Shown piece after piece: positions 17,296 to 23,425 of a stretch of 37,040 nt of DNA. The translations under genes and the position numbers were made by a program. The DNA is taken from NCBI GenBank assembly GCA_029559915.1, contig JAKPZU010000171.1:1-37040 (forward strand). Reading direction: 5' to 3'. Below the pieces are notes generated by a model, which was not told where the DNA came from, ran no database searches, and saw only the letters and a list, made by a program, of their open reading frames with translations. Each line of letters begins with the position of its first letter. The stretch's first letter is position 1. This DNA is from Bacillota bacterium. Lineage in GTDB: Bacteria > Bacillota_I > Bacilli_A > Izemoplasmatales > Hujiaoplasmataceae.

Positions 17296-17772
17296 TTACC
17301 TTTTGGCTAATTGATGGTCCATCATCAATAATCCGTTTGGACCGCCCATTTTTACCTTTTCAATCAATTCAGAGAAGTTTGCTTCCTCTTCAACTTGTTC
17401 GTTCAAATACCAATTCAAGAAAGAAACACTGGCATAGTCTTTTAATTCAATTGCCATCGCCATCAAATTGTTAATGCGTTTTGTGACTTCTTTTTCATGG
17501 TTTAAAGATACTTCAAGAATTTCAAGCACTGAAGCAAATTCATTTTTTGGAGAAGCGAAGCCGCGAATGTCGACTCTTTCTCCTCTGCTGTTCAAATAAT
17601 CCATAAATTTTTGTGCATGTTCCAATTCTTCTCGGAATTGGATTTGGAACCAATGTTCAAATCCTTTCAAGGAATGAGCCGCGAAATAGTTTTGCATTGC
17701 CAAGTAAACGTGAGCAGATTCAATTTCAAAATTCAGTTGCACATTGATTGCTTCCACAAATTTTTTATCCAT
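17296..17772 (-). CDS. Ferritin
   Basis: A 158-residue non-haem ferritin that oxidises Fe(II) and stores iron in a 24-subunit shell. Ferroxidase ligands align with E. coli FtnA at an offset of one: Glu16, Glu49, His52, Glu93, Gln126 and Glu129. Motifs include NFEIESAHVYLAM, FREELEHAQKF and NEQVEEE. The start is preceded by the strong ribosome binding site AAGGAGGA. It has its own promoter between this gene and pepF. Substrate and fold assignment are secure; in vivo role (storage versus peroxide protection) is inference. Confidence 0.95.
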   Translation of the reverse strand: MDKKFVEAINVQLNFEIESAHVYLAMQNYFAAHSLKGFEHWFQIQFREELEHAQKFMDYLNSRGERVDIRGFASPKNEFASVLEILEVSLNHEKEVTKRINNLMAMAIELKDYASVSFLNWYLNEQVEEEANFSELIEKVKMGGPNGLLMMDHQLAKR

Positions 17773-20406: not shown

Positions 20407-20435
20407 TTTCATTTTGAATCGAAATTTGTTATAAT
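20407..20435 (+). promoter_or_regulatory. EncFtn gene promoter
   Basis: TATAAT (20430-20435) with TTTCAT (20407-20412) at 17 bases; it lies 26 bases before the start codon. Confidence 0.5.
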
Positions 20436-20461
20436 AGAATTAATGAAAAAGGAGGAGTAAT

Positions 20462-20746
20462 ATGAATCAATATCATGAACCTTATGAATTATTAAGTGAT
20501 GAAGTAAGAGAAATCACCAGAGCCATCAAATCTTTAATTGAAGAATTTGAAGCGGTAGATTGGTACAATCAAAGAGCGGCGGTAACAAAGGATGAAGAAC
20601 TGAAGAAGATTTTACTCCATAACCTTGATGAAGAAGTTGAGCACGCAGCAATGGCGCTCGAATGGTTACGAAGGAAAATGCCAGTCCTCGACAAGGAACT
20701 TAAAGACAATCTTTTCAAAACTGGCAAAATCACCGGTAATCACTAA
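20462..20746 (+). CDS. Encapsulated ferritin (EncFtn) homologue without targeting tail
   Basis: Ninety-four residues closely following Rhodospirillum rubrum EncFtn: HEPYELLSDE, SLIEEFEAVDWYNQR, HNLDEEVEHAAMALEWLRR and LFKTGKIT. The ferroxidase residues align at an offset of four (Glu28, Glu58, His61), as do Glu27, Glu30, Trp34 and Tyr35. EncFtn is a two-helix protein that forms decamers and oxidises iron inside an encapsulin nanocompartment. Here the chain stops at ITGNH, so the Gly/Ser-rich linker and C-terminal encapsulin-targeting peptide are missing. No encapsulin shell gene is adjacent; degraded DNA follows. AAGGAGGAG precedes the ATG. It may work free of a shell or with a shell encoded elsewhere. 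Confidence 0.85.
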   Translation: MNQYHEPYELLSDEVREITRAIKSLIEEFEAVDWYNQRAAVTKDEELKKILLHNLDEEVEHAAMALEWLRRKMPVLDKELKDNLFKTGKITGNH

Positions 20747-20757
20747 CACTTTCACTT

Positions 20758-20783
20758 AAAAGCACTCTAGGTGAGTGCTTTTT
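20758..20783 (+). terminator. Terminator after the EncFtn gene
   Basis: The stem AAAAGCACTC/GAGTGCTTTT with loop TAGGT is followed by further T residues, 12 bases after the stop codon. Confidence 0.85.
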
Positions 20784-20844
20784 ATTTGGCTAACGTTGTT
20801 TATTCACAGATAATTTGATAAAATATTGATAAAAGGTAAAATAC

Positions 20845-21099
20845 ATGATAAAAATTGTCACGAGCAAAAAAGACTTAAATCAATTTAGTTATTTTGTTAA
20901 GGATTTATATAAAGATGAGGACCATTATATATATCCTGTTTTTTCTATTTTGAAAAAGTAATTACGTAAAAAAGTCTTACAGGATAAGTAGTATACGGTA
21001 ATTGTTTCTTTGAAAGGTGACGTATTAGTTCCTTCATTAATGATAGGAGTAACGATTTTGGAATCATCGCTTCTATCAACAAGAAAGTCAGGGAAGTAA
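20845..21099 (+). pseudogene. Remnant of a GNAT-like acyltransferase gene
   Basis: ATG 20845 has AAAGGT before it and starts MIKIVTSKKDLNQFSYFVKDLYKD, the opening of a common GNAT-superfamily protein type (K-x-x-DL-x-x-F-x-x-x-x-x-LYK). TAA at 20959 interrupts it after 38 codons. The same frame continues with LRKKVLQDK, a TAG at 20989, then YTVIVSLKGDVLVPSLMIG, which keeps family character, before a final TAA at 21097. The rest of a gene usually over 350 codons is missing. I read it as a decayed gene with nonsense mutations and a 3' deletion. Confidence 0.65.
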
Positions 21100-21103
21100 A
21101 GTT

Positions 21104-21451
21104 AACCACAATCTTGGCCATTACTTGATCTTAATCTTTTCTTTTGCGTTAGCTTCCTCAGTTAATTTTCTTCTTATCACCGGTGATTTTTCCAAAATAA
21201 TCATTCCTTATTGAATAATCACCTTGGGTGCATTCCTGTTGGCAATGGTTATTTCGATGTTCTTTAAGATTGACTCTGATTGCATGATTGTCTGTGCAAC
21301 TGCAGGAATTTACGGACCGGCGTTCATACCGGCTATTACGAAACAGTTAAAGAATGACAACTTGACTGCTCCGGGACTGATTGTCGGTTCAATTGGTTAT
21401 GCGATAGAAACTTTCTTGGGACTGCTTTTTGGTCTATTGTTCATGATATAA
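21104..21451 (+). pseudogene. Remnant of a DUF819-family membrane protein gene
   Basis: One frame reads HNLGHYLILIFSFALASS, then a TGA at 21212 in the position of a Trp (IIPY-stop-IITLG), then ATAGIYGPAFIPAITKQL and LTAPGLIVGSIGYAIETFLG to the TAA at 21451. The latter part is the conserved C-terminal region of DUF819 (YjcL-like) integral membrane proteins. The N-terminal two thirds are absent, and there is no ribosome binding site for the downstream open part. A single TGG-to-TGA change explains the stop. Left flank is fused to the GNAT remnant, suggesting one deletion joined two genes. Confidence 0.7.
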
Positions 21452-21469: not shown

Positions 21470-23425
21470 ATGCCTTATCAAAACAAGTATTTGGAGTTGC
21501 TTAGTCAGAAATATCCCACAATTCAAACTGTGGCTTCGGAGTTGATTAATCTCAGTGCGATTTTGAATTTGCCGAAAGGCACGGAAATCTTTATCACCGA
21601 TATCCACGGAGAATATGATGCTTTCAATCATTATCTGAAGAACGCATCCGGCATCATCAAGGAAAAGATTGACTTGATTTTTCCAAATCTCAGTGAAGCG
21701 GATAAGAATCGTTTGGCTTTTTTCATCTATTACCCAACAGACATGCTCAATAAATATAAAGAGATGCTTAAGGGTGAAAACTTCCAGAAACTGATTAATC
21801 AACAGCTGAGCTATATGATTTTATTGGCCAAAGAGATTGTGACCAAATACACCAAAAGCAAGGTCAGAAAATCTCTCCCGGATGAATTCAGTTATATCAT
21901 TCAAGAACTGATTTATGAATCAAGTTCACATGAGGACAAGGAAAGATATTATCAAGCTATTATCGAAGCGATTTTCTTGACAAAAAGAGAAAGTAAATTT
22001 ATTCTGCAATTATCAAGATTCATTAGAAAATTGGCTATAGACAGACTCCATATCGTCGGTGATATTTTTGACAGAGGACCTTTGCCGCACTTGATTATGG
22101 AGAAGCTGTCTTCCATGAATAATGTTGATATTCAATGGGGCAATCACGATATCTCTTTTTTGGGAGCTGCAAGCGGTTCTAAAGTGATGGTCGCAAACGT
22201 TATCAGAATCGCGGCCAGATACAACAATCTGGATTGTTTTGAAGACGGGTATGGAATAAATCTTATTCCCTTAGCACGATTGGCGGAAAAATATTATAAA
22301 AAAGACGAATGTAGTTTATTCATTCCCAAAGGCTTGAACGTCAATTATAAAAAAACTGAGGATTTATCATTTATTGGAAGAATCCATAAAGCCATTACCA
22401 TCATCCAGTTCAAGTTGGAACACAATCTGATTACTCGAAAACCAGGATTTATGTTGGAAGATAGACTCTTGTTGGATAAAATCGATTTTAACGATAATAC
22501 TGTCTTGATCAATGGCGTTAAATATCCGCTTCTAGACCACAGTTTTCCAACCATCAATCCGAAAAAACCTTACGCATTGAATAAAGACGAAGAAGAAGTG
22601 ATTAATCACCTTACCCAACTTTTCCTTCACAATGAAATGTTACAAAAACATGCGCGTTATTTGGTGCAAAACGGCTCTATGTATTTAAAGTACAATAACA
22701 ACTTGCTCTTTCACGCAGCCGTGCCACTAACTGAAGATAGACAGTTCTTAAAACAAACAATCAATGGCAAGGAATATTATGGTCGAGGGCTTTTCGATGA
22801 GTTTGATCGTTTGGTCAGAAGTGCTTTCCTCAATCGCTATGAAAAGGACAATTTTGACAAGGATTACTTTTACATCCTCTGGCAAAGCGGAGCGTCTCCT
22901 CTTTTTGGCAAACACTCGATGAAGACTTTTGAAAGATATTTTATCGCTGACAAAAAGACTCATAAGGAGATTACAAATCCATATTATAAATATCGCCTAG
23001 AAGAAGATGTCTTAAGGATGATTTATGATGAATTTGAACTTGATTTCAACAAATCAAAAATCGTCAACGGTCATGTACCGCTTGATATCACCAAAGGCGA
23101 TCAAGTCGTATTGGCAAACAAAAGAATTTATTCCATCGACGGCGGTATGAGCAAGGAATATGCTGATAGAACCAATATCGGCGGCTATTCGTTGATTTCC
23201 GACTCCCACGCCTATTTCCTGGTTTCCCACGAAAGATTCGACAACTATCAAACCTTGATCAATCAAGAAAAAGATATTGTGTCAATCACACGTTCCGAAG
23301 AATTAAATACTAGAAGAACATATATTTATGACACCAATAAAGGTACGGAATTAAAAGAGAAAATCAACGATTTGTTGCAATTGCTTGAAGCTTATCGAAA
23401 TGGTACCATCACAGAAAAAAAATAA
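21470..23425 (+). CDS. fbp: Fructose-1,6-bisphosphatase, class III
   Basis: A 651-residue cytosolic enzyme of gluconeogenesis that removes the 1-phosphate of fructose 1,6-bisphosphate. It is of the Bacillota class III type, a calcineurin-like metallophosphatase with the metal motifs TDIHGEYDAF (Asp44, His46), HIVGDIFDRGP (about 192-203) and WGNHD (about 223), and later NGHVPLD and SIDGGMSKEY. Length is close to the Bacillus enzyme (about 670). AGGAGG precedes the ATG. With pyruvate kinase in the window it shows that both glycolytic and gluconeogenic flux are possible. Confidence 0.96.
   Translation: MPYQNKYLELLSQKYPTIQTVASELINLSAILNLPKGTEIFITDIHGEYDAFNHYLKNASGIIKEKIDLIFPNLSEADKNRLAFFIYYPTDMLNKYKEMLKGENFQKLINQQLSYMILLAKEIVTKYTKSKVRKSLPDEFSYIIQELIYESSSHEDKERYYQAIIEAIFLTKRESKFILQLSRFIRKLAIDRLHIVGDIFDRGPLPHLIMEKLSSMNNVDIQWGNHDISFLGAASGSKVMVANVIRIAARYNNLDCFEDGYGINLIPLARLAEKYYKKDECSLFIPKGLNVNYKKTEDLSFIGRIHKAITIIQFKLEHNLITRKPGFMLEDRLLLDKIDFNDNTVLINGVKYPLLDHSFPTINPKKPYALNKDEEEVINHLTQLFLHNEMLQKHARYLVQNGSMYLKYNNNLLFHAAVPLTEDRQFLKQTINGKEYYGRGLFDEFDRLVRSAFLNRYEKDNFDKDYFYILWQSGASPLFGKHSMKTFERYFIADKKTHKEITNPYYKYRLEEDVLRMIYDEFELDFNKSKIVNGHVPLDITKGDQVVLANKRIYSIDGGMSKEYADRTNIGGYSLISDSHAYFLVSHERFDNYQTLINQEKDIVSITRSEELNTRRTYIYDTNKGTELKEKINDLLQLLEAYRNGTITEKK

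What the first reader, a model, noticed from the sequence alone, without database searches (positions are those of the whole stretch)
20462..20746. EncFtn homologue with full ferroxidase residues but no encapsulin gene or targeting tail
All key residues of encapsulated ferritin are kept, yet the protein lacks the C-terminal cargo peptide and stands alone next to decayed DNA. Shell-free EncFtn would release iron oxidation products into the cytosol; a canonical ferritin lies about 3 kb away on the other strand and may take up the iron.
Basis: partly seen in the sequence, partly recalled or inferred. Interest (0 to 1): 0.55.

Follow-up and report, generated by a model that had tools for sequence, protein, structure and literature searches.

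The report
Encapsulin cargo that outlived its shell
A small iron-oxidising protein that normally works inside a bacterial protein shell (encapsulin) is kept here, under strong selection, after the shell gene and the protein's shell-docking tail were lost; close relatives show the loss at several stages, which makes an unsettled question about such "short" proteins testable.

Summary
ORF 20462-20746 (+) is a 94-aa EncFtn-like protein with every ferroxidase residue and no targeting tail. The genome (an 83%-complete MAG of Candidatus Izemoplasmatales) has no detectable encapsulin. Across 90 genomes of the order, 28 carry encapsulin, and their EncFtns carry a C-terminal tail, nearly always ending in a targeting-peptide-like motif. 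In nine genomes (five of the window's genus, four of a sister genus) EncFtn is intact, encapsulin is absent or a pseudogene, and the protein stops just past the ferritin domain. Synteny puts the lost shell gene between EncFtn and FBPase_2: intact in G007, a pseudogene in G010, cleanly gone in G006, G008, G009 and G029. rpoB and encapsulin trees imply about three losses. Low dN/dS (about 0.02-0.13) indicates a functional shell-free protein. All nine also carry classical ferritin, against 6 of 28 shell-bearing genomes, but phylogeny confounds this. Short shell-less EncFtn is already known (2016 "Non-EncFtn"; 2024 "s-FLP"), so this is a new member of a known kind. New is the shell loss seen in progress, and evidence that short EncFtns are usually not encapsulin cargo (45 of 47 other genomes lack encapsulin). 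Iron hand-over to ferritin is untested.

The parts
20462..20746 (+). EncFtn-like protein, 94 aa, no targeting peptide
20430..20435 (+). TATAAT, likely -10 element of EncFtn's own promoter; similar ...GTTATAAT in G006, G008, G009 and G029 (inferred; the automatic sigma-70 scan did not call it)
   Evidence: sequence; scan negative here
20450..20457 (+). AGGAGGAG ribosome-binding site
   Evidence: sequence
20758..20782 (+). 10-bp hairpin ending in a T run, 11 bases after the stop: likely terminator, so the gene is probably a single-gene unit
   Evidence: fold -13.7 kcal/mol, z -2.8; the simple terminator scan did not call it
20839..21009 (+). remnant of an acetyltransferase-like gene (intact in G026)
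   Evidence: tblastx against L064
21057..21451 (+). remnant of a DUF819 transporter gene (intact in G026); together with the previous part it fills the slot where G007 has encapsulin
21470..23425 (+). class III fructose-1,6-bisphosphatase (FBPase_2), the conserved right-hand neighbour that marks the encapsulin slot
17296..17772 (-). classical non-haem ferritin (Ftn), 158 aa
17839..19530 (-). M3 family oligoendopeptidase, usual neighbour of this ferritin in the family

Best explanation
The gene encodes a former encapsulin cargo that now works free in the cytosol as an open EncFtn ring: a ferroxidase and small-capacity iron buffer with no storage cavity. Shown here by comparison: the ancestor of this family of Izemoplasmatales most probably had EncFtn with a targeting peptide, followed by encapsulin; the shell gene was lost about three times (window genus g1; G009; the G006/G008/G010 branch), in each case the EncFtn now ends just past the ferritin domain, and the remaining protein stayed under strong purifying selection with all catalytic residues. 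Inferred: it still assembles and oxidises Fe(II), and the classical ferritin, which was probably already present in the ancestor of g1, g2 and g3, carries the bulk storage that the shell once provided, so the shell became dispensable while the ferroxidase did not.
For: Shell status and tail go together: the EncFtns of the 28 shell-bearing genomes have tails (one extra tail-less paralogue in G078), nearly all ending in a targeting-peptide-like motif, while 9 of 9 shell-less EncFtns stop just past the domain. Slot series EncFtn-[shell]-FBPase_2: intact in G007; pseudogene with several stops, 52-62% identical to G007's shell, in G010; 84-137 bp and no remnant in G006, G008, G009, G029. G007 and the G010 pseudogene are sisters in the encapsulin tree (100*), and G007 and G009 are sisters in the rpoB tree (98*). 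dN/dS is 0.02-0.05 in g1 and 0.04-0.13 in shell-less g3, where dS could be estimated. Ftn is in 9 of 9 shell-less against 6 of 28 shell-bearing EncFtn genomes (Fisher 4e-5, phylogeny not corrected); every one of the 38 EncFtn genomes has an encapsulin or a Ftn. The Ftn forms one group in g1/g2/g3. R. rubrum EncFtn without shell is an active ferroxidase but precipitates iron (PMC5012862).
Against: Almost all genomes are MAGs; of the shell-less ones only G006 and G008 are single contigs. The ferritin association rests on about two independent contrasts. No biochemistry exists for any of these proteins, and dS is near saturation in many pairs. Shell-free R. rubrum EncFtn aggregates with excess iron, which would be a cost in the cytosol. 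Parsimony by count alone also allows one loss plus a regain in G007 (2 changes).
Confidence: 0.6

Rival explanations
1. Encapsulin is present but missed: it lies in the unassembled part of the MAG or is too divergent for the models, and the short EncFtn docks by another route (for example its His-rich end).
For: The genome is only 83% complete. A 2024 review suggests a putative docking sequence LFTDKPIAHE at the end of short EncFtns (PMC11202242). The family-2 model PF19307 had no positive control here.
Against: Five species of the genus and two single-contig genomes of the sister genus lack it. The slot beside EncFtn is filled or closed, and in G010 holds a dead shell gene. The motif LFK-x-G-x-I-x-H-H also precedes the true targeting peptide in shell-bearing relatives, so it is better read as the end of the domain than as a docking signal. 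45 of 47 short-EncFtn genomes elsewhere have no PF04454 encapsulin.
Confidence: 0.08
2. The EncFtn gene is on its way out: a relic with no present function after shell loss.
For: Neighbouring DNA is decaying. One genus member, G028 (82% complete), shows neither EncFtn nor a strong Ftn match. The window copy has R55L in an otherwise conserved HNRDEE motif.
Against: Intact ORF in nine species across about three loss events, all ten functional residues kept, low dN/dS, strong ribosome-binding site, likely own promoter and terminator.
Confidence: 0.08
3. The protein has taken a role unrelated to bulk iron storage, for instance O2 removal or metal delivery, and the link with ferritin is only phylogenetic coincidence.
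For: The ferritin has a classical sequence and should not need a second ferroxidase; the association has few independent contrasts. Short EncFtns are common in Proteobacteria, where ferritin content was not tested.
Against: All iron entry, exit and ferroxidase residues are unchanged, which favours the old chemistry.
Confidence: 0.24

Closest known systems
Short or 'Non-EncFtn' ferritin-like proteins (s-FLP), e.g. Nitrosomonas europaea NE0167, PDB 3k6c
   Same: About 95 aa, same domain, same ferroxidase residues, no recognised targeting peptide; most genomes with this type lack encapsulin.
   Different: The window's protein belongs to the Izemoplasmatales clade of mostly tailed cargo proteins (96*) and became short on its own, rather than joining the proteobacterial short forms.
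EncFtn cargo of family-1 encapsulins (Rhodospirillum rubrum Rru_A0973, Haliangium ochraceum Hoch_3836)
   Same: Domain, ferroxidase centre, metal entry and exit residues.
   Different: No C-terminal targeting peptide and no shell gene.
Classical bacterial ferritin (FtnA type), as at 17296-17772
   Same: Ferritin superfamily, di-iron chemistry.
   Different: EncFtn is a two-helix half-ferritin that, in solved relatives, forms an open ring without a storage cavity.

Membership tests
EncFtn-like family (PF22277 / TIGR04535) | Profile match above curated cut-offs | tested here: met
   131.1 vs 27 bits and 127.5 vs 125 bits
EncFtn-like family (PF22277 / TIGR04535) | Ferroxidase residues E32, E62, H65, Y39 and entry/exit residues E31, E34, H57, E61, E64 | tested here: met
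   All conserved
EncFtn-like family (PF22277 / TIGR04535) | Metal-dependent decamer with ferroxidase activity | not testable with these tools
   Needs purified protein
Encapsulin cargo (EncFtn with targeting peptide, FLP-TP) | C-terminal targeting peptide of L-x-I/V-G-x-L type | tested here: not met
   Protein ends LFKTGKITGNH
Encapsulin cargo (EncFtn with targeting peptide, FLP-TP) | Family-1 encapsulin gene beside it or in the genome | tested here: not met
   None in genome or genus; slot lost or filled
s-FLP / Non-EncFtn | About 95 aa, no targeting peptide, all ferroxidase residues | tested here: met
s-FLP / Non-EncFtn | Forms a decamer like 3k6c | not testable with these tools
   Only sequence similarity to 3k6c shown
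Classical ferritin (PF00210) | PF00210 profile match | tested here: not met
   No PF00210 match listed for the 94-aa protein at E<=0.1

The most novel reading that the evidence does not exclude
Shell-free EncFtn and cytosolic ferritin form a two-part iron system in which the open EncFtn ring oxidises or buffers iron and ferritin stores it, a functional replacement for the encapsulin compartment that evolved repeatedly in Izemoplasmatales.
Probability: 0.15. Interest if true: 0.7.

Novelty: new member of a known kind. Interest (0 to 1): 0.45.

Why it matters
Whether short EncFtns are encapsulated by an unknown signal or work free in the cell is described as unclear in a 2024 review (PMC11202242). 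The Izemoplasmatales series is a natural deletion experiment: same locus, shell intact, dead or gone, with the docking tail absent when the shell is absent while the enzyme is preserved. It argues that EncFtn has a selectable function without a shell, and that the proposed docking motif LFTDKPIAHE is only the end of the domain. It also gives matched protein pairs (G007 versus G009) for a direct test.

Tried and rejected
Encapsulin remnant in the decayed DNA: rejected; it matches an acetyltransferase-like gene and a DUF819 gene. Apparent encapsulin next to G027's EncFtn: traced to a wrong query of mine (a membrane protein from L038) and dismissed. Family-2 encapsulin (PF19307): no hits, but the control was silent, so uninformative. 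Acquisition of the short form from Proteobacteria: rejected, because the Izemoplasmatales EncFtns form one clade (96*). The independent-contrast test for shell versus ferritin had too few pairs to decide. No structure prediction was run, since a close relative is solved (3k6c).

Full report
What is there. The ORF at 20462-20746 (+) is intact, 94 aa, with an AGGAGGAG ribosome-binding site and a TATAAT element upstream, and is followed after 11 bases by a 10-bp hairpin that runs into T residues (-13.7 kcal/mol, z -2.8; a simple pattern scan called neither the promoter nor the terminator). It matches EncFtn-like (PF22277) and TIGR04535 above cut-off, and its nearest solved relative is NE0167 (3k6c). 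All residues that R. rubrum EncFtn uses for the ferroxidase centre and for metal entry and exit are present (numbering from PMC5012862).

The genome. The window lies in a MAG of 2.49 Mb, 83% complete and 5.5% contaminated. The closest named contig, 98% identical over the protein and with the same gene order, is Candidatus Izemoplasmatales STE_170. No encapsulin was found with PF04454 or with the G007 encapsulin at E<=1.

The order. Of 90 genomes, 38 have EncFtn and 29 match PF04454; one of the 29, G010, is only a pseudogene. The window genus (G000, G026, G027, G029, G030) and G006, G008, G009, G010 of the sister genus have EncFtn without an intact shell gene. Their EncFtns are 94-102 aa and stop just past the conserved LFK-x-G-x-I-x-H-H end of the domain. 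The full-length EncFtns of shell-bearing genomes are 110-121 aa and carry tails, mostly ending in LxIGxLK-like targeting peptides; G007 has a shortened ...SLKIK end and G011 an atypical one. G078 has both a tailed and a tail-less copy beside its shell gene. G023's EncFtn is cut by a contig end and was left out of the counts of tails.

The slot. In G007 the order is EncFtn, encapsulin, FBPase_2. In G010 an encapsulin pseudogene with several stops lies in the same place (52-62% identical pieces). In G006, G008, G009 and G029 only 84-137 bp separate EncFtn and FBPase_2, with a hairpin (shown for G006) and no shell remnant. In the window, G026 and G027 the slot holds an acetyltransferase-like gene and a DUF819 gene, intact in G026 and decayed in the window.

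How often was the shell lost? In the rpoB tree G007 (shell) is sister to G009 (none), 98*; G006, G008 and G010 form another branch, 98*; g1 is separate (G000 itself had only rpoB fragments and is represented by G030). The encapsulin tree joins G007 with the G010 pseudogene (100*), next to genus g4. The simplest history with an ancestral shell is three losses; one loss and a regain in G007 is shorter by count but needs reinsertion in the same slot and a regained tail.

Is the shell-free protein functional? Pairwise dN/dS is 0.02-0.05 in g1 and 0.04-0.13 among shell-less g3, similar to shell-bearing genera (0.04-0.08), where dS could be estimated.

Ferritin. A classical Ftn (PF00210 above 100 bits) is in 9 of 9 shell-less EncFtn genomes and in 6 of 28 shell-bearing ones (Fisher 4e-5), but the tree offers only about two independent contrasts, both in the expected direction in most pairings. 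The Ftn of g1, g2 and g3 forms one group (97*), and in all three genera it lies near the same M3 peptidase, so it probably predates the shell losses. G007 shows neither this Ftn nor a close homologue of its M3 peptidase neighbour, but is only 80% complete. That the ferritin takes up EncFtn's product is not shown.

Beyond the order. The 80 best relatives in GTDB genomes are mostly short EncFtns of Proteobacteria. Of 47 short-EncFtn genomes searched, 45 have no PF04454 encapsulin; two with a targeting-peptide tail (L183, L216) do. Short EncFtns were noted in 2016 as 'Non-EncFtn' (PMC5012862) and in 2024 as 's-FLP', with a putative docking sequence LFTDKPIAHE and the remark that encapsulation is unclear (PMC11202242). 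In the Izemoplasmatales alignment this stretch is present in tailed proteins too, ahead of the real targeting peptide, so it is better read as the end of the domain. I found no paper on encapsulin in Izemoplasmatales in the searched library.

Mechanism. Shown: gene, residues, absence of tail, absence of a detected shell, selection. Inferred: free decameric ferroxidase or iron buffer in the cytosol, with ferritin as store. R. rubrum EncFtn alone oxidises iron but holds only tens of ions and precipitates with excess iron (PMC5012862), so a store or a low iron flux is needed.

Noticed in passing
L012/L081 (G078): Two adjacent EncFtn genes before encapsulin, one tail-less (94 aa) and one with a targeting peptide: possible mixed decamers.
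   Followed up: no
L013/L066 (G007): The only shell-bearing member of its genus has a shortened targeting peptide (...SLKIK) and no detected classical ferritin; it may be a late stage before shell loss or a reciprocal loss.
   Followed up: partly
window 20839-21451: Decayed acetyltransferase-like and DUF819 genes, intact in G026 (L064), fill the former encapsulin slot.
   Followed up: yes
window 20624-20626: R55L in the HNRDEE motif (HNLDEE) in the window copy only; the other Izemoplasmatales copies in the alignment keep R. Recent change or sequencing error.
   Followed up: no
G091/G092 (L159, L160; L231, L234): Two gammaproteobacterial genomes have a short EncFtn and an encapsulin elsewhere in the genome; the shell's own cargo was not examined.
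   Followed up: no
window genome G000: MAG of 2.49 Mb against 1.2-1.6 Mb in its genus, 5.5% contamination: may merge more than one strain.
   Followed up: no
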